This document shows, one piece after another, positions 2,735 through 42,566 of a stretch of 51,834 bases of DNA. Each line of letters begins with the position of its first letter. The stretch's first letter is position 1. The DNA lies in the IMG/VR virus record IMGVR_UViG_3300028581_000002, positions 1 to 51,834 of that record; one strand, written 5' to 3'. The translations under genes and the position numbers were made by a program. Source of the stretch: a virus. The notes under the pieces are model-generated. The model was not told the origin of the DNA and did not search any database. It saw only the letters and a program-made list of their open reading frames with translations.

Positions 2735-3697
2735 TTAATTTTGTATTTGTAATGTTCCTATGCTTCCAGTCTCAGTTAGAGCCCTAAATTTAAGTTTAGT
2801 CACAACTGTAGGAACGACTCCTTCATTTTCGTACGTACGTTCATCGTAAAACGCAATCGATAATCTATCAGACTCAAACGTTATAGGTAATGTCCTATAC
2901 TCTGTAGCTACTGGTAATTTACCCGTAAGATCTTCATTGTCTAATAGTATCGAATATCTTGATAAGGATATTAATGGTTGTAGTAGCTGTATTCTAAATT
3001 CACATGAAATGCCAACTATAAGATCTTCTATTGAATACGTAGCAACAAAAGACAGCATACTAGTAACTTCATTAGGGAGTGGTAATCTTGCTGGGGTTAC
3101 GTCTGTCCCATATAAAATATCCTCAAGATATGCTAATTTCACTGGATTTATTTTAGTAGAATCGATAGTTATAGACGCTGTAGGTTTGAACCCTGTGGCT
3201 AATACGGGAGTTGTTGATGCCTCCCAGGAATATGTTAATGCATCAGGCGAATCATTAACAGAACTATAACCTGTTTCTGATGGGGCAACTATTGCTCCGT
3301 AGATAAGATGCAACTTATACCCATGCTCTCCGCCATTAACATCATTGCCGATGGATGTTCTATAACACAGCCCGAATGGTTTTCTTTTCTGTTGTTTTAT
3401 TGTTACACCTGGGGTCATTAATCTTGTTCCATCGCAAACCCCAAATTCTTCTGGGTAGGAATATGCCTCAATCGTCAAACCAAGTTCCTCGACAGATAAT
3501 AAGTTTAGATATTTAATATCGTTTGCATACAAGGGACTTGCTTCTGCACCGGAAGGACTTTCGGTTATCGCTGTTAAACCATTCCACGCAACGCCTATAG
3601 GGTAATCGCCACTAATATCCTGAGGATATAGAACTCCCTGACGTATGCCGGTCTCATATAATTTCTTACCTGATTCTCCCCAAACAAGTTTTGGCAT
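2735..3697 (-). CDS. Second major tail tube protein paralogue, C-terminally extended
   Basis: 320 residues. The first roughly 215 residues are closely similar to the major tail protein at 5533..6189: both start MPKL.W.E.GK..YETG.RQG and share AWNGL.A.TESPSGAEA, KYLNL and QKRK/H-x-FGLCYRT. About 100 extra C-terminal residues (from LSFVATYSIEDLIVG) are absent from the short copy. It probably forms part of the tail tube or a specialised end or surface-decorated subunit. It is separated from the first copy by the two tail chaperones and an amidase, suggesting duplication followed by acquisition of a domain. The start has a strong AAGGAGG site. Confidence 0.8.
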   Translation of the reverse strand: MPKLVWGESGKKLYETGIRQGVLYPQDISGDYPIGVAWNGLTAITESPSGAEASPLYANDIKYLNLLSVEELGLTIEAYSYPEEFGVCDGTRLMTPGVTIKQQKRKPFGLCYRTSIGNDVNGGEHGYKLHLIYGAIVAPSETGYSSVNDSPDALTYSWEASTTPVLATGFKPTASITIDSTKINPVKLAYLEDILYGTDVTPARLPLPNEVTSMLSFVATYSIEDLIVGISCEFRIQLLQPLISLSRYSILLDNEDLTGKLPVATEYRTLPITFESDRLSIAFYDERTYENEGVVPTVVTKLKFRALTETGSIGTLQIQN

Positions 3698-3727
3698 ATT
3701 ATTTCCTCCTTATCTCTCTATCTCTTA

Positions 3728-4477
3728 TCACCCAAGAAGTTTCAATCTGTTTAATATAACAGCAAGTTGCTCTCTTGTTAATAGACCCTTTGGGTCATCG
3801 ACAAGACCGTCCGTATTACCGTCAGAAAATATACCACTAGCAACACCTTTTTGACTAGATTCTAACGCAAAGTTCGACGTTGGTAAACTTGTTAAATACT
3901 CTGTTAATCTGTTGAAAATAGTTTCTCCATCCATATCTTCTTCCTCCTCTATTTTAGGTGCAAGATTAGCATTGACTCTGTTTGCTATGTCATAGTGAAG
4001 TCTATATAAATAGTCTCCAGGGCATTCTTTTTGCGCAAACCAACGATGAACTGTCATGTTCTGTTTACTAACTTGCCCAATTAGGCTTTTATTGCCTTTC
4101 CATAACAATTCTTTAATACCATTCCTTTGACAAATGTCGGTAAGAAGTGATATCAATGCTTCATATGCTTTTTTAGACACTGACCAATTTGGTCCGCCAC
4201 TATTATTCGCCACTTCGATTGTTACTGCACGATTATCGTTTGATGACGAAGATGTACACCACGAACGATCTCTCTCATCGACGTATAAAGCAATACGTCC
4301 ATCAGATCCTATTCCATAATTGCTACTAGCTTCGCTTGACTGGAATATTCTACCACAACTTTCAATAGAAACATTGCCTGCCATACAATGTATAGATATG
4401 GTATCGATTTTATGATTTCTTGGACTGCTCTTATGTGAGCTTATATGCTTATAACAAATTAAAGGACTGTTGCTCAT
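3728..4477 (-). CDS. N-acetylmuramoyl-L-alanine amidase (Amidase_2/PGRP type)
   Basis: 249 residues. An N-terminal zinc amidase domain shows ISIHCMAGN with the first zinc histidine, a VTIEVAN strand and the late HRWF...KECPGDYLY region, which supplies the second histidine and the Cys/Asp side of the site. It would cut the amide between MurNAc and L-alanine in peptidoglycan. After an acidic linker (EEEEDMDGE) the C-terminus ends in GLVDDPKGLLTREQLAVIL, resembling an end domain seen in other gut phage lysins. The gene lies between the tail chaperones and a tail-tube paralogue instead of beside the holin, so it could be a virion-associated lysin or the endolysin itself. Confidence 0.87.
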   Translation of the reverse strand: MSNSPLICYKHISSHKSSPRNHKIDTISIHCMAGNVSIESCGRIFQSSEASSNYGIGSDGRIALYVDERDRSWCTSSSSNDNRAVTIEVANNSGGPNWSVSKKAYEALISLLTDICQRNGIKELLWKGNKSLIGQVSKQNMTVHRWFAQKECPGDYLYRLHYDIANRVNANLAPKIEEEEDMDGETIFNRLTEYLTSLPTSNFALESSQKGVASGIFSDGNTDGLVDDPKGLLTREQLAVILNRLKLLG

Positions 4478-9954: not shown

Positions 9955-10464
9955 TTATTTCTTCTTATCGGCAATCATTTTGTTAACGCGAGAATTAATA
10001 TCTTTAAGGTCTTTGGTATTTTGATATACCAGTGTTCTTCTTACGTTATCTTTAAAACTACCAGCTTTTTTCGATTCTCTATCCGCTTTGTCTGTTAGAA
10101 TTGGATGAACTAAGTTATTCATAGTTACTTTTCCAGCTTCTTTTAACCAAGAAGATCCTTTGTTGATCGACTTCTGATTAACATCTTTCATTTTCTTTTT
10201 ATCAGCGAGTATTTTGTCAACACGAGAATTAATATCCTTAAGATCTTTGGTGCTTTGATACGCCAGCGTTCTTCTAACATTGTCTTTAAAACTGCCGGCT
10301 TTTTTTGATTCTCTATCGGCTTTGTCTGTTATGATTGGGTGGAGTAGATTATTTTTGGTTACTTTTCCAGCTTCTTTTAACCAAGAAGATTTACCTTTTC
10401 TTTTTCCCCATTTCATTCCAAGAACTCCAACATGGGCTAGTTCATTTTCACTAATCATTTTCAC
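9955..10464 (-). CDS. KWG-motif head-region protein with internal tandem duplication
   Basis: 169 residues. Near the N-terminus is LAHVGVLGMKWGKRKGK, a motif shared with two other proteins here. The rest consists of two near-identical units of about 66 residues, each starting SSWLKEAGKVT and ending in DLKDINSRV.K..ADKKK. The duplication is visible at DNA level (roughly 9958..10150 and 10190..10385). Very lysine-rich and helical, it may be a DNA-contacting internal head protein. GTG at 10464 is the best-spaced start; an in-frame ATG lies two codons on. Function unknown. Confidence 0.7.
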   Translation of the reverse strand: MKMISENELAHVGVLGMKWGKRKGKSSWLKEAGKVTKNNLLHPIITDKADRESKKAGSFKDNVRRTLAYQSTKDLKDINSRVDKILADKKKMKDVNQKSINKGSSWLKEAGKVTMNNLVHPILTDKADRESKKAGSFKDNVRRTLVYQNTKDLKDINSRVNKMIADKKK

Positions 10465-10465
10465 G

Positions 10466-11116
10466 TCAAATGCCCCTCCTTTGCTTTTTGTACCCGTCTA
10501 TTATCCCCATTTTATGATCATCAGAATTCCAAATAACATTATTGACTTTTTCAGGCAGAATATTCCCTCCCCAACTTTTAAAACGTTCCTCATTTTGCTT
10601 ATGTTTTTTGGAAATCTGTGACATTTTCATCTTACCAAGTCTAGCGGCTATTGGAGCAACTATCATCGCTGTTTTTATACCGCCCTCGATCAAATCTTCT
10701 TTTGTGATTACACCGGAAGGACGGAGTTTTTTACCATTATCATCATATCGTTTAGACGCCGATTTAGCCAAGGCATCTTGTACCGCCATATTGGCCGCCA
10801 CTCTAACTGCCACATCAGTTGCCATTTTAGCAATATACTTTGGATCCTTTATCAGATATTTACCGCCTCTGCCTAAAAGAACATCCGTTATTACCTTTTG
10901 TGCAATTATACCCGATGCCATTTTGGTTGCCCTCACTGCAGCGCTGTGATTTCTATCTTTAAATCTCTTCGCATCCGATATATTTAAATTTTTATTCTTT
11001 TGAATATTGGAAAGTTTTTGACGATACGAGGCTTCTTTTTGTTTATGTTGCCCCCATTTCATTCCAAGAACTCCAACATGCATTAGCGATTCAAGAGATG
11101 GTTTATCTCCCTCCAT
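10466..11116 (-). CDS. KWG-motif head-region protein
   Basis: 216 residues. The N-terminal LMHVGVLGMKWGQHKQK carries the same H-x-G-(3)-GMKWG signature as its neighbours. A basic helical segment follows, then a middle region with small-residue helices (AVRATKMASGIIAQKVITDVLL; AVRVAANMAVQDALAKSASK) that may be amphipathic or membrane-associating, and a basic tail. It lies between the head-fibre candidate and the duplicated KWG protein. Proteins with this motif are common beside portals in gut phages; I know no established function. Confidence 0.65.
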   Translation of the reverse strand: MEGDKPSLESLMHVGVLGMKWGQHKQKEASYRQKLSNIQKNKNLNISDAKRFKDRNHSAAVRATKMASGIIAQKVITDVLLGRGGKYLIKDPKYIAKMATDVAVRVAANMAVQDALAKSASKRYDDNGKKLRPSGVITKEDLIEGGIKTAMIVAPIAARLGKMKMSQISKKHKQNEERFKSWGGNILPEKVNNVIWNSDDHKMGIIDGYKKQRRGI

Positions 11117-13915: not shown

Positions 13916-14494
13916 TTATACCTTTTGTGTTACAGCGCCCGTTACTGCTTTCTTGACAGCTTGTCCAAATGGAGTACTACCAAGAGCATAAAGCGCGGCA
14001 AGTGTTGTTCCTGCTGCAGTAACAGCCTTAACAGCATCTAAGCCTTTTGAATAATCACTAACTTTTAGTTCTCTCAGCGATTTTTCTAGTTGTAACCTAG
14101 TATTAAGGGATTTGAGTTCTTGATTGGTCAGATGTTTATATCCTTTTGCTTTTGCTTCCCTAGCAGCAGTATAATCATCTGCTATAGGTAGTTTCTTCTT
14201 TTTCTTACCAGGTTTATTACCACCAGAACTCCTTTTACCCCATTTCATTCCTGGGATTCCGAAGTGCGATAATACTTTATCGGCTCCGTCATGATAAAGA
14301 TTTTCAATTGCTTCTTCGGTGCTAACTTCTGGACGATCATAAGAAACAGAATTACCAAAAGAATTTATTGGCATGCTCTTACGTTTAAGACTGCCAATTA
14401 AATCTTGGGCTTCACTTTCTCTACGCAGTCTGATGATTAAATCGTCAAGCTCTTTATCCGTCGCATTTTTAATTGATTTTGATTTATCGGCCAT
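13916..14494 (-). CDS. KWG-motif basic protein between connector and terminase
   Basis: 192 residues. A charged helical N-terminus is followed by VLSHFGIPGMKWGKRSSGG, then a polybasic patch (KPGKKKKKLP), a helical segment (YKHLTNQELKSLNTRLQ) and a small-residue hydrophobic end (AVTAAGTTLAALYALG) that could be membrane-inserting. It is the third protein here with the GMKWG signature. An AAGGAGG site supports the ATG at 14494. Function unknown; an internal or portal-associated virion role is a guess. Confidence 0.65.
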   Translation of the reverse strand: MADKSKSIKNATDKELDDLIIRLRRESEAQDLIGSLKRKSMPINSFGNSVSYDRPEVSTEEAIENLYHDGADKVLSHFGIPGMKWGKRSSGGNKPGKKKKKLPIADDYTAAREAKAKGYKHLTNQELKSLNTRLQLEKSLRELKVSDYSKGLDAVKAVTAAGTTLAALYALGSTPFGQAVKKAVTGAVTQKV

Positions 14495-15621: not shown

Positions 15622-15730
15622 ATTTTAGAGAGACTTATGTAAGGATTAAAAGTCCTTGAAAGGAGCCCCGACTCACCACTTCGGAGAAATTAATACTGAC
15701 CTTTAATCCTTATATAAGTCTCTCTAAAAT
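15622..15730. repeat. 29-bp inverted repeat forming a long hairpin
   Basis: 15622..15650 is the reverse complement of 15702..15730 with one position differing, which would be a G-U pair in RNA. The 51-base loop has its own short inverted repeats (TCC/GGA around TTGAAA; GAG/CTC around CCCCGA). It lies between the stop of the SH3 gene and the ribosome site of the small terminase. Possible roles are an RNase III-type processing site, a stable small RNA or a packaging-related structure. No matching promoter is visible. Confidence 0.85.
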
Positions 15731-15744
15731 TTATGTAAGAATTT

Positions 15745-16257: not shown

Positions 16258-16329
16258 TGTAAATTCCTCCTTGTAATTGTGTTTGGTTGGTCCCTTCACG
16301 GCCCATAGAACCGGAAACATTCCCAAAAA

Positions 16330-16402
16330 TGCTCCCGCGGGGAAAAATAAAAGAGTCAGGCGATATGGGCGGGGGGTATGTGGTGCGAGACCTCCCCCCT
16401 AG
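16330..16402. other. GC-rich palindromic non-coding region, candidate cos site
   Basis: In an otherwise AT-rich genome this 70-base stretch holds the palindrome CCCGCGGG (16334..16341), then a run of six G (16371..16376) and a run of six C (16394..16399) able to pair across it. It lies in the non-coding gap upstream of the SH3 and small terminase genes, where cos sites of HNH-type siphophages usually occur. No gene fits here. The call is by composition and position only. Confidence 0.35.
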
Positions 16403-16424
16403 TGTTAAATAATTTATTTTTTAT

Positions 16425-16667
16425 TTATTCAGAAGACATTGTAACTTTTTTATAGATTCCTAAAATATTTAAGTTAACAATTTCATCAATAGCTTGTTCG
16501 ATAGCCAAGTCTTCATCGGCTTCTGATAACTCATCACTTGTTTTAACTATTCTTGCCAAGTATGCACATGAATAATATCCATTGATCTCATCAAACTTTT
16601 TCCAATCATCAAACTGATCGAAAGGAGAAAACGGATTATCAATAGTTGTTAACATTACAGATCTCAT
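16425..16667 (-). CDS. Conserved phage protein of unknown function
   Basis: 80 residues, acidic, with MLTTIDNPFSPFDQFDDW, NGYYSCAYLAR and an AIDEIVNLNILGIYKKV ending. I recognise this as a protein seen in many Firmicutes phages near terminase genes, without a known role. An AAAGGAG site at good spacing supports ATG 16667. It lies directly downstream of the RNA polymerase-like gene. Confidence 0.7.
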   Translation of the reverse strand: MRSVMLTTIDNPFSPFDQFDDWKKFDEINGYYSCAYLARIVKTSDELSEADEDLAIEQAIDEIVNLNILGIYKKVTMSSE

Positions 16668-16685: not shown

Positions 16686-19370
16686 CTAAGTTAATGCTTT
16701 TGATAATCCAGCGGTTGAGATGCCTAAAGCTTCTGCGACTTCTGCTTGTGTGTAGCCTAAGTCAAGCATGGATCGTGCACGAGTGACACGAGCTTTAGCA
16801 ATAGATGTTGTAGTTCTAGGTGTAGCCAACTCTTTAACTCTATCAAGATTAGTGTTCTGTAGAATCTGAGTTAATCTTGATGGACTAACAGCACCTGCTT
16901 GAATAGCGGCCCATTCTTTATCTGAGATCTCAACTTGATTCTTATGCGCTCCTGTGCGTGTTCTTGCTTCTGCTAATGCTTGGTTACGTACCTTCTTAAG
17001 ATCATCGGCATCCATGTTAGGATTGGCTTGAAGCTTCCTATTAACAACAGATGTAGCAAGAATCTGTGCTTGTCTCTCAATTGGTTTGTTCATAAGCGCA
17101 ATGTTTAAGTGAGCTGTTAGAGTGGCAACTTCTGTCTCATAAGCCTTCTTTGCGGATGGGCTATATGGGGTTGGTATTGTGGATAATGCATTAGCTCTTG
17201 ATTTATTACCAAGACCCTTTAAATTATTAGCATAAGCGGCATATACCTCTTCTATGGGGCGGCCTGATGATAGTTCAAAGGCGTCAGATACTTCTGCCAT
17301 CTTTGTAGATTTATTCTTCTTCTCTATCAATGTGCCTTTTTTATTTACATACGACACCCCGGTAGGAGTATAAACTTTCTCACCAGTAATGCGGTCTATT
17401 GGTCCACCATCTTTAGCGCTTCTTGGTTTTCTGTCTAAGACTCTCTTCTCAGAAGATGCTTTAGATACTAGAGTAGATGCGCCACCACGTTTACCATTTT
17501 GATATCTTTCACTTAGAGCAGCTATCCCATGATCAATATATGATCGCCTATAATCAAGGTTATGCTTCTCTGAGTCTATTACAACCATTGAATGCCTAAC
17601 AGCCCTAGCGAGCTCGTCAATAGTGGCACCTTTAATGGTCATATCTGTAATTAGATTAGAGGCTTCTCCCATTTTGGTTTGCTTAGTTTTTGGTTTGATA
17701 GGTGGTATATTGGAACCTTCTGGAATACGGTATAATTCAATAGGATCAAAGTTTTCAAGACCTTTAAGTGATGCAGAAGTCTTTATATATCCTCTATTGT
17801 TTGGTATAACTATGACGGCATCTCCATCGAAGTCTGCTCCAGACATTTTTTGAGCAACCTTTGGATGAATACCAATGGCATCCGGAGCATTACCCATAAC
17901 ATCTTTTGCCGATTTGTTCTTATTGTTTACTATTAATTGGGGTATTTCAAAAGTTCCTCCATGAGGATGACGAATAAGAACTACGGCTTCTCCATCTTTA
18001 TATGTCGGTGCATAAACCTCATTCATTTTAAGCCCTGGAATAGGAAGAAGAACTTTAGATGCTTGTCTCGGTAAGGCTGCGGCTTTAAGATGAACTGCAG
18101 ATGAATCGCAATCATCAGAAAATGCAAGAAGAAGTTGTTTTTTAACAACAGGATTTGTGAGTGCCATGATTTCATCATATTCTTCTTGTTTGTGTTTCAA
18201 AGCCAAATCGAGTTGAGTTTTTGCTAATGGCACTGTTTGTTTTGAAAGTATTTGAGACGAGATCGTTTTAGACCAATGCTCCCAATCACCCTCTTCATTA
18301 ACAATATTAATAGAGCCTCTCTGTCCTCCTGGTTTTATAGTTGCGCCAAAAGGATTATCCGGATCAATTATTTTTTTACCAGTATCATCAGGAACTTCTT
18401 TCATTTTTTTCATAGCATCAAGCTTGTTACCCGTATCCGATTTATTAGTGTTAAATATAACATCAACACCTTTTGGCATGTTATCACTATAAATAGCCAT
18501 TCCTTTTAGGAAATGAGTACCATCAACACCAATACGAACTTGAGCATATTTAGCTCCACCAAGATCTAGATCTTCGACGCCTTTGCGAAGCTCCATAACC
18601 CCATCTTTATCGCTACCACCATCTTTGGCATAGCGAACCATGATTCTTTTTGAATCAACGCTCTGTATTGGTTTTAAACCTAAATCTGAATGATAAGATC
18701 TACCAAAGTCATCAGAAGAAGCAGTAATGCTCTTTATTTTATCAAAATCTCCAGGTTTAACTATATCTTTCCACTCTGTATCTGGTGTACCTAAAACTTT
18801 AACTATCGTAAACTGCCCAGGTATACCTATTTGCGGAACGTTTACCTTATGCACCTTATATCCTTGCTCTTGTAATTCGGCAACAGCAGTGTTTAACTTA
18901 GTAGGACTTACTCCAAGGTGATTGGCAACGCCAGCACCAATATCTATAAATCTTTTTTCATCAACACTTTCTTTCAGCATACTAGCTGTGGCTTTTGTAA
19001 TTGCCGCTCTCTCAGCAAGGATTGGGTCTATGAGACTTCTTACAGAGGATTCATTCCATGTTTTATTTGGAGAGCTCATGCGACGAGCAATTTCCATATT
19101 AGAATATCCCTTATCTTTATATCTCATAGCCACTGTTCTATTTTCTGCTCTACCATCATCTTTAGTTATAGAGTTTCTTGCTCTCAGTTGACTTGTCTTT
19201 ATTCCTTCAAATTTAGCAATTTCTGTAGCGCTTAATCCTTGATCACGGAGTGCTTGAATATGACCACGCCAACCTACAGCTCTTTGATATGGTTCCCCGC
19301 CACTTCCCCAAGGGTAACGCCCAGAACGGCGAGCCATTCCATAATGTTTTAATTCATCGCTCATGAACAT
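16686..19370 (-). CDS. Single-chain two-barrel RNA polymerase-like protein with HTH segments
   Basis: 894 residues. Residues 512-517 read ADFDGD, the metal-binding signature of the beta' barrel of cellular RNA polymerase; the flank matches too (VVLIRHPHGG upstream, then IGIHPKVAQKMSGADFDGDA). Residues about 272-307 resemble the beta-subunit barrel: a lysine-containing FLKGMA (Lys289) followed by DNMPKGVDVIFN, like beta 'KGV...DMP...VDIILN'. Beta-like before beta'-like in one chain is the plan of YonO-type phage RNA polymerases. Helix-turn-helix-like segments occur near 35-65 (LSATEIAKFEGIKTSQLR), 85-113 and the extreme C-terminus (YTQAEVAEALGISTAGLSK). The N-terminus LKHYGMARRSGRYPWGSG recalls the KWG motif of head proteins. 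Start is ATG 19370 or 19364. Polymerase activity is inferred. Confidence 0.8.
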   Translation of the reverse strand: MFMSDELKHYGMARRSGRYPWGSGGEPYQRAVGWRGHIQALRDQGLSATEIAKFEGIKTSQLRARNSITKDDGRAENRTVAMRYKDKGYSNMEIARRMSSPNKTWNESSVRSLIDPILAERAAITKATASMLKESVDEKRFIDIGAGVANHLGVSPTKLNTAVAELQEQGYKVHKVNVPQIGIPGQFTIVKVLGTPDTEWKDIVKPGDFDKIKSITASSDDFGRSYHSDLGLKPIQSVDSKRIMVRYAKDGGSDKDGVMELRKGVEDLDLGGAKYAQVRIGVDGTHFLKGMAIYSDNMPKGVDVIFNTNKSDTGNKLDAMKKMKEVPDDTGKKIIDPDNPFGATIKPGGQRGSINIVNEEGDWEHWSKTISSQILSKQTVPLAKTQLDLALKHKQEEYDEIMALTNPVVKKQLLLAFSDDCDSSAVHLKAAALPRQASKVLLPIPGLKMNEVYAPTYKDGEAVVLIRHPHGGTFEIPQLIVNNKNKSAKDVMGNAPDAIGIHPKVAQKMSGADFDGDAVIVIPNNRGYIKTSASLKGLENFDPIELYRIPEGSNIPPIKPKTKQTKMGEASNLITDMTIKGATIDELARAVRHSMVVIDSEKHNLDYRRSYIDHGIAALSERYQNGKRGGASTLVSKASSEKRVLDRKPRSAKDGGPIDRITGEKVYTPTGVSYVNKKGTLIEKKNKSTKMAEVSDAFELSSGRPIEEVYAAYANNLKGLGNKSRANALSTIPTPYSPSAKKAYETEVATLTAHLNIALMNKPIERQAQILATSVVNRKLQANPNMDADDLKKVRNQALAEARTRTGAHKNQVEISDKEWAAIQAGAVSPSRLTQILQNTNLDRVKELATPRTTTSIAKARVTRARSMLDLGYTQAEVAEALGISTAGLSKALT

Positions 19371-22103: not shown

Positions 22104-25100
22104 TTAAAATGGTAGTGCATCATATCCAGCTTTACATTCCATTCCAGTCTCTGCGCTAATACTCCAATCGGGACACCCAAGACAATCGTTTCTTCCACAA
22201 GCCATCACCCATGGGGGAGTGTCATTAAATCCAATTGGTTCATCTTTTGAGTCATTCTTTATAGTATCCGATATAAACCACTCGAAGTCTCCATATTTAG
22301 AAATGTCTTCAACCGCGGCATCAACCATGTTATTATAATAGTCTAAATCTAATTCCTCTTTTTTCTCAAGTTCAATTATCATCTCTGCTTCCAACCATCT
22401 ATATCCTTTGCTACCCGTTGCTGCGTAGTACTTACCCTCTTTTTCTCTCATAAGAAGTCCGCCACCACAACCAGGTCTAACTGGACAGAATGCTCCAACC
22501 CTACCAATGAAATGATAGTCATGATTTTCCGAGGTTTCATTCATGTCAAGATATAAAGCTGAAGTTACCGATTTTACTTCTAACATATCCTCAAATTCAA
22601 TTGGTTCATGAGAGAATAGTGTTTTGAATACGTATGGTTGCGCGAACTGCGCCCCTGTAGCTGTCCATTCTCCAATATGTTTTCCATCTGGGGTCCATCC
22701 AACTTTTGCAATGTATACCGCATCGTTAACTAGACAGAATCGGCTATATGTCTCTTCATGTTCGAAATCATAACCATATTCCTTTCCAAAGTTCATGACA
22801 AATTGTATTATTTCAGGGGTTGCATCTGGAATTTTGATAGAGTCGGTCTTAATGTGAACAACATCAAACCCTTGGTTATTTACCGCCTCTTTCAAGTCGA
22901 CCATAAACAAAGCACCACGTTTAGCAACAACATTGTCTATATTTCTAGGATCCTTAAACGGATTTTCGAAACTAGCCGATGTTAATCCATATGCAGAGTT
23001 AAGCGCAGTCTTCAATCCATTAGATACATCTTTCAATGTAAATCTCGGATTATCACTAAGAGCATTTTCTATAAAAGGTATTAGACGTCCATTTAATAAA
23101 GTTTTCAATGTATCAAAGTCTTTACGTTTGATCGCTAGGCGACCAGCCTTTAGATCGCTGTAGTTCTTAGTATAGCGGCCAAACATTTGTTCTGCTTCAA
23201 TGGTTGTTGGATGCATAGACGCGACGTCAAGCACGGCAACATTAGAATACATACCGGGTTTGGCAAATACATATCCACCCTCGCCAGTCTTTACTCCACG
23301 ATATGTACTAACCCCATTTTCAAATTTATAACCAATAAATCGTTTACTTAAGTCTGGATAATTGAAACTAGATTGGGGCTTCTTATCATTACCAAACACT
23401 ATCTTGATAGAATGTTGATTGGTTGTATCATTTACGGATAGTCCACTCAACTCTGCTAAGATTTGTCTTGCGGCCCAGTCGCCTGCTAAATGATCAAATG
23501 TGGCTTCTGTCGCGTCAACATCGTTTCCGCAATAATCTGCAACTGTACCCCATAACGCTTCGGGTACATCTTCGTCCCATGGAAGACCTAATTCTTGATG
23601 ATGAATTCCAAGTTTTATCTCCCATTTTTTTAGGCCCATTTTATTTTGCACACAAGCAAAGTCGTATACGTCGGTGTAAGAAATATTGTATGCTTCACCA
23701 AACATACAGTTACGACTTCCTTTTATTATCTTTTGACTAAGCTCATATAACTGTTTGTTATCGTACCCTATATATCGGGCATACAGTATATGATTATCAT
23801 ACCTACGACAATTGAAACCTATTAACTTTAATTTAAAAAGCTCCTCAATCTCACTTGCCGATGGATTAATCATCTTAACTTTATTACCGCCTTTTTTTTT
23901 CCATACAACAACAAACAAATTTGGGAAAACCTCAACATCATAGAATATAAGGTCTTCATTTTTAACATCATCAACAGATGCACTGCTCTCGTCAGATGTA
24001 AATTGCATTTTACTTACCAACTTAATACAGTAATCTGCTTGATGAGAGGAATTGTTTGCGAATGCTAATACTCTAGGACGCATATCTTTAACATCATATG
24101 GCATCCCTGATATATAAGCTTCATCTAGTATTTTATAAATGAAGTCTATACTTGGTTTGGTGCCTGGGTGAATTTCTTTTCTAAGATTTCGAGAAATAAT
24201 ATCTCTTAATCCCTTCTCACTTTTAACAGCTTCGAAGTTGATCACGCTCTTATCTCCTTTCAAAGGCAAGCCACTACTTATTGTGGCTATTGGTGAATTG
24301 TTGCATTTGGATAGTCTCCTCCTCAAAGATGCTTGCCCAACAAATACTTTAATTTCAATACCTTCTGAATATACTCTACTAAGTTTGCGAGCATCGCCGT
24401 CATAATTATAATGAAGATGAATCCCCGCTCCACTTTTACTAAACTCGGCATATGTAGTTGGCCATTTACTTGCGGCTTCAAGATTTAACTGCATGGACTT
24501 TTCACCACTAATATCTTTTAAATCAAAATCAATGACTATATGATTTAATGGCGGTTTAACATAATGAGTTTCCCTAGTGTTGATATCGGACAGAGTTGTA
24601 GTAGTCTCATCCCATTTACCCTTAGGCGTTTCTTTTGCCGTAGCATACTGCGCAGGGCAATCGGTTAACTCCTCGTCAAGTATCGAATTTGGATCGTCAA
24701 GCACTAGTGAATATGGCGTTTCCTCTTTTGGTGTTTCTGATATAGCAAACTTCTCAGAAAGGAAACCCATATAATAACTACGGATCTGCTTACCATCGAC
24801 TCTTGTCATGTCAAGAAACTTCTCAAAATATGACTTAAGTTCTTCCCTAAATTTATGGCGAGGCATTTTAAACTCAATAAGAGCTTCGTCGCAATAAGCT
24901 TTATATATTTCATATGCTTGGGCTAGACTTACTCCATCTTGTTCTTTGAATATATGATAGTTTGCCTCAACAAAGTTAAAGAATACATCTGTTTGAAATA
25001 TCATCTCTAATGGGCGATAACCGGCATAATAATTTTTACCTTTTTCTTGATATACTTGAAGACAGTGCCAAGCAATAGAGCCCAATTCAAAATCTATCTG

Positions 25101-26036
25101 ACTAATTAAAGTGTGATATCTCTTTGTTGGTATCTTATTATTGCTTGGTCTGACATCTATAAGTCTTCTTATAATTCCGGATTTAGCATCAGTTATCTTA
25201 ACTGGTTTGTTTGTACCCATAAATAGAAACGCATTTGATCGTGCCATATATGCTGGTTTAAATTTTTCATGCATTGTCATTTCTTCATGAGATATTATTG
25301 AGTTTAGTTTTGTATTATCCTCTATTCTTGAAAGGTCTCCATCATGTTGAATTGCAACTAATGGGTTGCCTCTAAAAACTTCTGTGGAAAATACATTACT
25401 GGCGCTTGTTAAAGCCTTTGCCTCGAACGTTGTATAGTATCCTTGAAAGAGACTTTGGATAATGTTAAGAATGGTAGATTTGCCTGTACCAGCTTCTCCG
25501 TACAAGACAATAAATTTTTGAATGTTCTTTGCGTCTCCTGAGATGATAGCTCCGATAGCCCATTCGAGTTTTGTCCTTTCTTCTGGTTCATACAAGGTTC
25601 CGATGAGTTCGTCATACGCATCTATTTTTCCTTCCTTCAAAGAATATGGTAATCTGTGACTAACATAATCGCTTTTTTTTACTTCAGTATTTGCAAATGC
25701 AATATGATCGTCCAATTGATGTGAATTATCAGACATCTCTCTAATAAAAGCTCTATAGTTCTTCCACATATTTGAAGACATACTTATCATTCGTTTTATT
25801 TCTATAGGGCCTGAGAAAGCTTTCTGCCTTTCACTTTTGTATTCATTTAGTTCTTCATCAACTAATCGCTGAACATCATACTCGTCGGTTGACCACATTT
25901 GTTTGTTGTTATCCCATATCGCATAAAATGATCTCCCGCGAATCATCAAATCTTTAGATCGACAAGCTTTGAAGTCGGGATATATTTGAAGAGTTCCTTT
26001 TTTGCTCGTTTCTTCTGTGATGTGATAGAAATCCAC
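22104..26036 (-). CDS. Helicase-primase-family B DNA polymerase fusion
   Basis: 1310 residues in one uninterrupted frame; GTG start after AAAGGAGG. Residues 150-350 are a D5/SF3-like helicase (Walker A GEAGTGKS at 180-187; FMGTNKPV at 272-279; GIIRRLIDV). Residues 498-600 resemble an archaeo-eukaryotic primase: IDFDL (502-506), SGAGIHLHY (535-543) and GIEIKVF. Residues 698-850 hold the 3'-5' exonuclease (YDVEVF with Asp700/Glu702; FNCRRYDNH; YCGND with Asp839). The polymerase has motif A DVASMHP (Asp937), motif B LKTALNSAYG (1008-1017) and motif C HIKTDSIKI (Asp1065). Motif C has KTDS where most family B enzymes have DTDS; the essential second Asp is kept. The C-terminus is cysteine-rich (CGRNDCLGCPDW). 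Together this is most of a replisome in one chain. Confidence 0.9.
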   Translation of the reverse strand: MDFYHITEETSKKGTLQIYPDFKACRSKDLMIRGRSFYAIWDNNKQMWSTDEYDVQRLVDEELNEYKSERQKAFSGPIEIKRMISMSSNMWKNYRAFIREMSDNSHQLDDHIAFANTEVKKSDYVSHRLPYSLKEGKIDAYDELIGTLYEPEERTKLEWAIGAIISGDAKNIQKFIVLYGEAGTGKSTILNIIQSLFQGYYTTFEAKALTSASNVFSTEVFRGNPLVAIQHDGDLSRIEDNTKLNSIISHEEMTMHEKFKPAYMARSNAFLFMGTNKPVKITDAKSGIIRRLIDVRPSNNKIPTKRYHTLISQIDFELGSIAWHCLQVYQEKGKNYYAGYRPLEMIFQTDVFFNFVEANYHIFKEQDGVSLAQAYEIYKAYCDEALIEFKMPRHKFREELKSYFEKFLDMTRVDGKQIRSYYMGFLSEKFAISETPKEETPYSLVLDDPNSILDEELTDCPAQYATAKETPKGKWDETTTTLSDINTRETHYVKPPLNHIVIDFDLKDISGEKSMQLNLEAASKWPTTYAEFSKSGAGIHLHYNYDGDARKLSRVYSEGIEIKVFVGQASLRRRLSKCNNSPIATISSGLPLKGDKSVINFEAVKSEKGLRDIISRNLRKEIHPGTKPSIDFIYKILDEAYISGMPYDVKDMRPRVLAFANNSSHQADYCIKLVSKMQFTSDESSASVDDVKNEDLIFYDVEVFPNLFVVVWKKKGGNKVKMINPSASEIEELFKLKLIGFNCRRYDNHILYARYIGYDNKQLYELSQKIIKGSRNCMFGEAYNISYTDVYDFACVQNKMGLKKWEIKLGIHHQELGLPWDEDVPEALWGTVADYCGNDVDATEATFDHLAGDWAARQILAELSGLSVNDTTNQHSIKIVFGNDKKPQSSFNYPDLSKRFIGYKFENGVSTYRGVKTGEGGYVFAKPGMYSNVAVLDVASMHPTTIEAEQMFGRYTKNYSDLKAGRLAIKRKDFDTLKTLLNGRLIPFIENALSDNPRFTLKDVSNGLKTALNSAYGLTSASFENPFKDPRNIDNVVAKRGALFMVDLKEAVNNQGFDVVHIKTDSIKIPDATPEIIQFVMNFGKEYGYDFEHEETYSRFCLVNDAVYIAKVGWTPDGKHIGEWTATGAQFAQPYVFKTLFSHEPIEFEDMLEVKSVTSALYLDMNETSENHDYHFIGRVGAFCPVRPGCGGGLLMREKEGKYYAATGSKGYRWLEAEMIIELEKKEELDLDYYNNMVDAAVEDISKYGDFEWFISDTIKNDSKDEPIGFNDTPPWVMACGRNDCLGCPDWSISAETGMECKAGYDALPF

Positions 26037-29276: not shown

Positions 29277-29302
29277 ATTATAGACTCTGTATTTACCGCG
29301 AA
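29277..29302 (-). promoter_or_regulatory. Conserved phage promoter copy (R0 leader)
   Basis: TCGC, four bases, AATACA, five bases, TATAAT on the minus strand, the same spacing as the other copies. It drives the structured RNA at 29202..29276. Confidence 0.8.
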
Positions 29303-36730: not shown

Positions 36731-36756
36731 ATTATAGAGTGTGTTTTACCCGCGAA
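36731..36756 (-). promoter_or_regulatory. Conserved phage promoter copy
   Basis: TCGC, four bases, AAAACA, five bases, TATAAT. Drives the 92-residue membrane protein at 36424..36702; it overlaps the C-terminal end of the upstream SleB-like gene. Confidence 0.82.
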
Positions 36757-37812: not shown

Positions 37813-37838
37813 ATTATAGCCTATGTAATTCTTGCGAG
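37813..37838 (-). promoter_or_regulatory. Conserved phage promoter copy
   Basis: TCGC, four bases, ATTACA, five bases, TATAAT. Drives 37548..37775. Its upstream element is one arm of the inverted repeat at 37831..37854. Confidence 0.85.
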
Positions 37839-38847: not shown

Positions 38848-38873
38848 ATTATAACCTGTGTAATTTTCGCGAA
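38848..38873 (-). promoter_or_regulatory. Conserved phage promoter copy (tRNA-like RNA)
   Basis: TCGC, four bases, ATTACA, five bases, TATAAT. The expected start of transcription falls at or within the first bases of the tRNA-like acceptor stem. Confidence 0.85.
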
Positions 38874-39115: not shown

Positions 39116-39141
39116 ATTATAACATGTGTAATTTTCGCGAC
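39116..39141 (-). promoter_or_regulatory. Conserved phage promoter copy (R2 leader)
   Basis: TCGC, four bases, ATTACA, five bases, TATAAT. It differs little from the copy at 38848..38873. It abuts the stop of the ligase gene. Confidence 0.85.
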
Positions 39142-40628: not shown

Positions 40629-40654
40629 ATTATATGCTAAGTAATACTCGCGAG
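40629..40654 (-). promoter_or_regulatory. Conserved phage promoter copy
   Basis: TCGC, four bases, ATTACT, five bases, TATAAT; drives 40432..40599. It immediately follows structured RNA R3. Confidence 0.85.
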
Positions 40655-40803: not shown

Positions 40804-40829
40804 ATTATACGCTAAGTAATTGCTGCGAG
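40804..40829 (-). promoter_or_regulatory. Conserved phage promoter copy (R3 RNA)
   Basis: TCGC, four bases, ATTACT, five bases, TATAAT. It starts eight bases after the terminator hairpin of the upstream cassette and has only R3 downstream before the next promoter. Confidence 0.85.
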
Positions 40830-41083: not shown

Positions 41084-41109
41084 ATTATAACCTATGTAAT
41101 CCCCGCGAG
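41084..41109 (-). promoter_or_regulatory. Conserved phage promoter copy
   Basis: TCGC, four bases, ATTACA, five bases, TATAAT; drives 40857..41057. The terminator of the preceding gene ends about 12 bases upstream. Confidence 0.87.
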
Positions 41110-41419: not shown

Positions 41420-41445
41420 ATTATAGGACATGAATATTATGCGAG
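41420..41445 (-). promoter_or_regulatory. Conserved phage promoter copy
   Basis: TCGC, four bases, TATTCA, five bases, TATAAT; the most divergent middle box of the set. Drives 41127..41390. Confidence 0.75.
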
Positions 41446-42152: not shown

Positions 42153-42178
42153 ATTATAGGCAATGTTTTGAATGCGAG
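42153..42178 (-). promoter_or_regulatory. Conserved phage promoter copy
   Basis: TCGC, four bases, AAAACA, five bases, TATAAT; drives 41993..42121. Confidence 0.85.
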
Positions 42179-42540: not shown

Positions 42541-42566
42541 ATTATAGCGCGTGTTTTAATTGCGAG
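42541..42566 (-). promoter_or_regulatory. Conserved phage promoter copy
   Basis: TCGC, four bases, AAAACA, five bases, TATAAT; it begins at the stop codon of the holin gene and drives 42229..42513. Confidence 0.85.

What the first reader, a model, noticed from the sequence alone, without database searches (positions are those of the whole stretch)
16686..19370. Single-chain two-barrel RNA polymerase-like protein with fused HTH segments
The protein contains ADFDGD at residues 512-517 in a beta'-like setting (IGIHPKVAQKMSG before it) and, about 220 residues earlier, a beta-like barrel phrase (FLKGMA...DNMPKGVDVIFN) with the conserved lysine. Both halves of the multisubunit RNA polymerase active site thus appear in one 894-residue phage protein, in the YonO-like order. 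Unlike cellular enzymes it carries helix-turn-helix-like segments at both ends, which might replace a sigma factor. It lies at the border of the replication and structural regions, so it may be the late-gene polymerase.
Basis: partly seen in the sequence, partly recalled or inferred. Interest (0 to 1): 0.9.

Follow-up and report, generated by a model that had tools for sequence, protein, structure and literature searches.

The report
Tagged single-chain phage RNA polymerase
This phage protein is a one-chain RNA polymerase of the same deep family as the enzymes that copy genes in cells; it carries a short tag shared with proteins of the phage head, and its phages share an unusual early-gene promoter, so it is probably carried inside the virus particle and switches on the first viral genes, although that has not been tested in the laboratory.

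Summary
In detail: minus-strand ORF 16686-19370, 894 aa, ADFDGD at 512-517. AlphaFold plus Foldseek place both barrels on QDE-1 and on the P23-45-type phage RNAP. It belongs to a known family (phrog_4291, 'RNA-dependent RNA polymerase') found in 250 phage records and many Firmicutes prophages. No sequence kinship to YonO was detected. Two things are new. (1) The N-terminus is an almost invariant disordered tag (HYGxxRxSGRYPWGSG). It is related to DUF7211 (HxGxxGMKWG), carried by head-module proteins of the same phages, some fused to enzyme or toxin-like domains. One relative carries the RNAP-type tag in the slot where the window has the DUF7211 type. The phage 1706 homologue was deposited as 'structural protein'. 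(2) These phages share an early-region promoter, TCGC-N5-TTACA-N5-TATAATGA (11 sites here). Of 39 metagenomic phage contigs found by this motif alone, 34 encode the RNAP; 0 of 10 control contigs do. Diverged relatives have diverged promoters with similar spacing. Packaging, promoter recognition and catalysis are all inferred.

The parts
16686..19370 (-). Single-chain two-barrel RNA polymerase, 894 aa (phrog_4291 family)
19299..19346 (-). N-terminal tag HYGMARRSGRYPWGSG (residues 9-24), predicted disordered, DUF7211-related; proposed virion cargo signal
   Evidence: intact in 176 of 183 relatives' genes; pLDDT about 37; DUF7211 HMM hits RNAP N-termini; profile comparison
19182..19271 (-). N-terminal helix-turn-helix (residues 34-63)
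   Evidence: Pfam HTH_23 E 1.3e-5, 48/48 members
18858..18929 (-). Winged HTH (residues 148-171)
   Evidence: Pfam HTH_24 E 1.1e-5
18300..18644 (-). Beta-like double-psi barrel (about residues 243-357) with invariant K289
17802..18062 (-). Beta'-like double-psi barrel (about residues 437-523)
   Evidence: partial match to Pfam RdRP over 504-601, 43 of 48 members at E<=1
17820..17837 (-). Catalytic ADFDGD loop (residues 512-517)
   Evidence: invariant in 48 relatives
16692..16796 (-). C-terminal HTH, sigma-region-4-like (residues 859-893)
   Evidence: Sigma70_r4_2 in 48/48 members, best E 3e-11
13916..14494 (-). DUF7211-tagged protein directly before terminase (SHFGIPGMKWGKR)
   Evidence: PF23847 E 5e-8; its positional and sequence counterpart in L030 bears the RNAP-type tag
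10466..11116 (-). DUF7211-tagged head-module protein
9955..10464 (-). DUF7211-tagged head-module protein next to portal
42541..42565 (-). Early promoter-like site TCGC-N15-TATAAT
42153..42177 (-). Early promoter-like site
41420..41444 (-). Early promoter-like site
41084..41108 (-). Early promoter-like site (TCGCGGGGATTACATAGGTTATAATGA)
40804..40828 (-). Early promoter-like site
40629..40653 (-). Early promoter-like site
39116..39140 (-). Early promoter-like site
38848..38872 (-). Early promoter-like site immediately before tRNA-Pro
37813..37837 (-). Early promoter-like site
36731..36755 (-). Early promoter-like site
29277..29301 (-). Early promoter-like site

Best explanation
The protein is a single-chain two-barrel RNA polymerase that is probably packaged in the virion through its N-terminal DUF7211-related tag and enters the host with the DNA. 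Its HTH domains would recognise the phage promoter TCGC-N5-TTACA-N5-TATAATGA, so that it starts early-gene transcription without host sigma factor. Status of each step: the two-barrel fold, the invariant catalytic residues, the tag, its sharing with head-module proteins, and the link between promoter motif and RNAP are shown computationally. Packaging, promoter recognition by this enzyme, and catalysis are inferred.
For: Fold: full-length model pLDDT 80.6, top PDB hits QDE-1 E 2.4e-9, RDR2, P74 gp62. Core-only model: QDE-1 E about 1e-10, TM to 0.55; phage gp62/gp64 RNAPs 4e-8 to 1e-7; cellular beta' matched over about 140 columns at rmsd near 3.3. Tag: intact in 176/183 genes. DUF7211 tag found in 40/43 RNAP-bearing records. 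In 57/65 loci with at least 8 kb downstream it lies downstream on the same strand, 0/65 on the opposite strand. The DUF7211 HMM also hits RNAP N-termini at E 1.7e-4 to 0.007. A relative of window 13916-14494, in the same slot before TerL, carries the RNAP-type tag instead. Tagged proteins include fusions to 2H/LigT phosphoesterase, Gln_amidase papain-fold toxin, GNAT and portal domains. Phage 1706 orf75, the homologue, was deposited as 'structural protein', as was tagged orf7. Promoter: 8 sites against 0.40 expected, 0/100 shuffles; 11 sites in all, one strand, early region only. Present in actinophages, always on the same strand, 0 reversed controls. IMG/VR scan at least 120 stretches against 11 for the reversed pattern. 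34/39 motif contigs encode the RNAP against 0/10 controls. Diverged RNAPs go with diverged -10 elements in a similarly spaced architecture: TATAGTAG in 1706/CHPC971, CTTTATGG in FP_oengus, TATATG in G022, which argues against host sigma-A reading. 8/11 sites are followed within about 20-31 nt of the predicted +1 by an RBS and ORF.
Against: No proteomics or enzymology could be run, and the 1706 and ReqiPepy6 papers are not held, so 'structural protein' as a mass-spectrometry result is inferred. Tag, promoter and RNAP occur in one phage lineage, so co-occurrence may partly be common descent. TATAATGA contains a perfect bacterial -10, so host sigma-A plus a phage activator could read the window's version. 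The tag can be internal in other proteins and its binding partner is unknown. One relative (G021) showed no enriched promoter in the stretch examined. The gene sits next to the late operon, as yonO does.
Confidence: 0.6

Rival explanations
1. It is the phage's late-gene polymerase, made after infection like YonO of SPbeta, and transcribes the neighbouring terminase-to-tail operon.
For: Position: last large gene before the terminase/head operon in this and other relatives, comparable to yonO lying shortly upstream of the late operon in SPbeta; YonO is shown experimentally to transcribe late genes (PMC5467207).
Against: The only clearly enriched phage promoter is in the early region; no repeated motif clearly above shuffle level was found before late genes. 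The virion-type tag and the 1706 'structural protein' label are not expected of a purely late enzyme. No sequence kinship to YonO.
Confidence: 0.17
2. The early promoter is read by host RNA polymerase with a phage activator or sigma-like factor, and the phage RNAP has another task; co-occurrence is only shared ancestry.
For: The window's motif contains TATAAT, a perfect sigma-A -10; all phages concerned belong to one lineage by shared gene order.
Against: Other members use TATAGT, CTTTATGG or TATATG in a similarly spaced architecture, unlike host -10s. The element at about -31 (TCGC) is not a -35. The motif is conserved between low-GC and high-GC hosts. Sigma-70-like sites are not enriched over shuffles.
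Confidence: 0.17
3. The N-terminal tag is not a packaging signal but a general interaction motif, for example for a shared phage or host partner, and the RNAP is not in virions.
For: Some tags are internal; function of DUF7211 is unknown and no paper on it was found.
Against: Apart from a few upstream copies, tag-bearing genes other than the RNAP cluster in the head/packaging module; two tagged proteins of phage 1706 were deposited as structural.
Confidence: 0.25
4. It is an RNA-dependent RNA polymerase, as databases name it, copying RNA in infection.
For: phrog_4291 name; partial match to Pfam RdRP in 43/48 members, best E 1.3e-4; nearest fold QDE-1, which uses RNA and DNA templates.
Against: A dsDNA phage with a linked DNA promoter motif and several DNA-binding HTH domains; YonO, of the same superfamily, is DNA-dependent (PMC5467207).
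Confidence: 0.04

Closest known systems
phrog_4291 family (RefSeq 'RNA-dependent RNA polymerase', SEA-PHAGES 'helix-turn-helix DNA-binding protein', FP_oengus 'putative RNA polymerase')
   Same: Same protein over full length, E=0; same operon place after VRR-Nuc and Cas4-like exonuclease.
   Different: Existing names disagree; I found no mention of the tag, the virion link or the cognate promoter in the records and papers searched.
QDE-1 / eukaryotic RDR polymerases
   Same: Best fold match; same order of two double-psi barrels.
   Different: No phmmer or profile hit to these PDB chains, only a partial Pfam RdRP match; added HTH domains and N-terminal tag; DNA phage setting.
YonO of SPbeta
   Same: Single-chain phage RNAP with DxDGD motif; lies shortly upstream of the late operon.
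   Different: No sequence homology detected; YonO lacks the tag; YonO reads late genes.
P23-45 / P74-26 RNAPs (gp96 virion RNAP, gp64/gp62 non-virion RNAP)
   Same: Fold match to gp62 and gp64; shows that siphophages can carry a two-barrel RNAP in the virion (PMC10770324).
   Different: gp96 is fused to the tape measure; here the RNAP is a separate tagged protein with HTH domains.
crAss-like phi14:2 gp66 and phiKZ virion RNAPs
   Same: Two-barrel RNAPs packaged in virions and acting early (general knowledge; phi14:2 structure listed).
   Different: Much larger or multi-chain; no DUF7211-type tag known.
T4 capsid targeting sequence (internal proteins, Alt)
   Same: Works alike: a short tag on unrelated proteins that brings cargo into the head (from general knowledge).
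   Different: No sequence relation shown; tag here may be internal; cleavage not shown.

Membership tests
Two-barrel RNA polymerase superfamily | DxDxD metal-binding loop in a double-psi barrel | tested here: met
   ADFDGD invariant; barrel region matches cellular beta' at rmsd about 3.3 over about 140 columns
Two-barrel RNA polymerase superfamily | Second (beta-like) double-psi barrel with conserved lysine in the same chain | tested here: met
   Core 236-640 aligns over about 540 columns with QDE-1, E about 1e-10; K289 invariant. Residue-level superposition was not available
Two-barrel RNA polymerase superfamily | Template-dependent RNA synthesis | not testable with these tools
   needs enzymology
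phrog_4291 | Full-length profile match | tested here: met
   E=0, residues 4-893
YonO-like proteins | Detectable sequence homology to YonO | tested here: not met
   tblastn of YonO lists no member of this family; hhalign finds nothing around the catalytic site, Prob 2.6
Late-gene phage RNAP | Cognate promoter before late genes | tested here: not met
   Motif only at 29.3-42.6 kb; no repeat clearly above shuffles elsewhere
Virion-associated RNAP | Protein present in purified virions | tested here: inconclusive
   Homologue in phage 1706 deposited as 'structural protein'; source paper not held
Virion-associated RNAP | Reads early genes from phage-specific promoters | tested here: inconclusive
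   Early motif linked to the RNAP, 34/39 against 0/10, but recognition is not shown
DUF7211 (PF23847) | Match over the curated cut-off | tested here: not met
   RNAP N-termini score 12.5-17.8 bits against cut-off 27: related variant, not a formal member

The most novel reading that the evidence does not exclude
DUF7211 and the SGRYPWGSG variant are two forms of one virion-cargo signal used by a large lineage of siphophages of Firmicutes and Actinomycetota to load diverse proteins (a two-barrel RNA polymerase, 2H phosphoesterases, deamidase-like toxins, acetyltransferases) into the particle for delivery to the host. The RNAP then transcribes early genes from a promoter that has co-diverged with it.
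Probability: 0.5. Interest if true: 0.92.

Novelty: new variant of a known kind. Interest (0 to 1): 0.82.

Why it matters
If true, a widespread phage lineage (over 500 metagenomic relatives in one scan, 250 phage records, many gut Firmicutes prophages) starts infection with its own packaged RNA polymerase and a defined promoter, which would be independent of host transcription control. The tag would give a handle on which phage proteins are injected, and the enzyme-promoter pairs would be a tractable single-chain model of the cellular RNAP active site and a possible orthogonal expression tool. The prediction can be checked by virion proteomics of laboratory-grown actinophages.

Tried and rejected
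phmmer and profile searches of PDB chains found no RNAP; only fold comparison did. Profile comparison with YonO gave nothing. The idea that the N-terminal 40 residues are widely mobile across unrelated phages was only weakly borne out by tblastn; the wider sharing is of the shorter DUF7211-type core. Literature on GMKWG or DUF7211: none relevant found. The reversed-sequence control inside my first pair-enrichment scripts was uninformative, because mirrored motifs keep their counts, and was replaced by Markov shuffles. Host sigma-70 promoter scans were not enriched over shuffles.

Full report
What is there. The ORF at 16686-19370 (minus strand, 894 aa) is as described. It matches phrog_4291, named 'RNA-dependent RNA polymerase', over its full length. 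Tblastn finds relatives in 250 of 50,697 phage records, all below 60% identity: Arthrobacter, Gordonia, Streptomyces, Lactococcus, Curtobacterium, Rhodococcus, Microbacterium, Faecalibacterium. IMG/VR yields at least 516 relatives and bacterial genomes 135, mainly Lachnospiraceae and other Clostridia. In most records examined it sits after VRR-Nuc and Cas4-like exonuclease genes and is followed by a small ORF; in linear records it is near the right end. Public names disagree: helix-turn-helix protein, hypothetical, structural protein, tail fiber protein, RNA-dependent RNA polymerase.

Is it a two-barrel RNAP? The AlphaFold model (48 sequences, pLDDT 80.6, pTM 0.69) has QDE-1 as best PDB match (E 2.4e-9), then RDR2 and the phage RNAP P74 gp62. 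The isolated core 236-640 (pLDDT 84.5) matches QDE-1 over about 540 columns (E about 1e-10, TM up to 0.55), P74 gp62 / P23-45-type gp64 (E 4e-8 to 1e-7), and the beta' barrels of actinobacterial RNAPs over about 140 columns at rmsd near 3.3. A partial match to Pfam RdRP over the catalytic region appears in 43 of 48 members, best E 1.3e-4. SGADFDGD and K289-G-M-A are invariant. So both halves are present in one chain. YonO is not a detectable sequence relative.

The tag. Residues 9-24 (HYGMARRSGRYPWGSG) are predicted disordered, yet the motif is intact in 176 of 183 relatives' genes; at least two of the exceptions are truncated contigs. Related tags (HxGxxGMKWG, Pfam DUF7211) occur on three head-module proteins of the window: 9955-10464, 10466-11116, 13916-14494. 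DUF7211 is found in 40 of 43 RNAP-bearing records, 1-9 per genome, and its HMM also reaches RNAP N-termini below the curated cut-off. In 65 loci with at least 8 kb downstream, 57 have a tagged ORF downstream on the same strand, 5 upstream, none on the other strand. A tblastn search with a DUF7211 consensus gives almost the same phage counts by genus as the RNAP (Arthrobacter 95/95, Gordonia 55/55, Streptomyces 54/54). I did not compare the two lists record by record. In MT835616 (L030) the gene directly before terminase is related to window 13916-14494 (56% identity over an 18-residue body motif, E 8e-4) but bears the RNAP-type tag (68% identical to the window RNAP over 28 residues), and a second such gene follows terminase. 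The two tags therefore look interchangeable. Tag profiles align with probability 94.6 over a [DE]-x-L-x-H-[YH]-G core; the HxG part was used for selection, the leucine and acidic positions were not. Tagged proteins include fusions to 2H/LigT phosphoesterase, a papain-fold deamidase-type toxin, GNAT, DUF5662 and portal domains, the kind of cargo expected of injected proteins (inference).

Virion evidence. In the original phage 1706 record, orf75 (the RNAP homologue) and orf7 (two DUF7211 tags) are deposited as 'structural protein' while most neighbours are 'unknown'. ReqiPoco6 repeats that label. I infer that this reflects virion proteomics; the source paper is not held.

The promoter. Intergenic reading of the window showed a repeated element. 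TCGC-N4-ATTAC-N6-TATAATGA has 8 sites with up to 3 mismatches against 0.40 expected. TCGC-N15-TATAAT has 11 sites, all on the gene strand and all at 29.3-42.6 kb; 8 are followed within about 20-31 nt of the predicted +1 by an RBS and ORF, and another directly precedes tRNA-Pro. The same motif recurs in actinophages (Qui 19, ReqiPoco6 10, Petito 9, DevitoJr 9), with none on the wrong strand and none for the reversed pattern in 32 records. Scanning IMG/VR for TCGC-N5-TTACA-N5-TATAATGA gave at least 120 stretches (limit reached) against 11 for the reversed pattern. Of 39 large motif contigs, 34 encode the RNAP (one of these only as a weak partial match, E 8.9e-9); of 10 control contigs, none. The other five motif contigs are 32-46 kb long. 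Diverged relatives have diverged but similarly spaced elements: 1706/CHPC971 TTTACA-N5-TATAGTAG; P162 TTTACA-N5-TATAATGA; FP_oengus CGCGAAA...CTTTATGG; G022 TTCGCA...TATATG. All exceed Markov shuffles. Elsewhere in the window the same pair scan gives nothing clearly above shuffles.

Mechanism. A promoter that diverges with the RNAP lineage and drops the host -10 consensus in some members is best explained by recognition by this RNAP; its HTH domains, including a sigma-region-4-like C-terminal one, are candidates for reading TCGC and TTACA. Because these promoters head the early region, the enzyme must be present at once, which fits delivery in the virion through the tag. Shown computationally: fold, conservation, tag sharing, motif linkage. 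Inferred: catalysis, recognition, packaging, timing. That the 29-43 kb region is 'early' is itself inferred from its place between tail and replication genes.

Known or new. Virion-packaged two-barrel RNAPs are known (phiKZ, crAss-like phi14:2; P23-45 gp96, PMC10770324), and this protein family is in databases. New here, as far as I could search, are the cargo-tag relation, the cognate early promoter and hence a separate, tag-delivered class. I therefore call it a new variant of a known kind.

Noticed in passing
L030 (MT835616.1) 1305-1898 and 3657-4214: Two small proteins flanking terminase carry the RNAP-type tag (HYGLPRRSGRYKWGSG) although they are not polymerases.
   Followed up: yes
L114 4088-5725, L115 3948-5651, L106 7946-8941, L070 15372-16283, L090 18129-19013: DUF7211 tags fused behind 2H/LigT-type phosphoesterase domains, possible injected counter-defence enzymes; other tagged proteins match a Gln_amidase papain-fold toxin model.
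   Followed up: partly
window 16425-16667: Small ORF (80 aa) directly downstream of the RNAP; a small ORF of roughly 75-95 aa holds the same place in most annotated relatives, a candidate partner of the polymerase.
   Followed up: no
window 15622-15731: Near-perfect inverted repeat with about 30-nt arms (TTTTAGAGAGACTTAT.TAAGGATTAAA) in the intergenic stretch between RNAP region and terminase cluster; function unknown.
   Followed up: no
window 16327-16424: C/G-run-rich intergenic stretch next to the small ORF, a candidate cos site by comparison with ReqiPoco6, whose cos end lies in the corresponding place.
   Followed up: no
window 22104-26036: 1310-aa protein combining a DUF5906/primase-helicase-like N-terminal half with a DNA-polymerase-like region (phrog_4210, phrog_1252).
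   Followed up: no
Qui MN183282.1 and pSs2407 PV588688.1: Tblastn reports a second place for the RNAP in these records; not examined.
   Followed up: no
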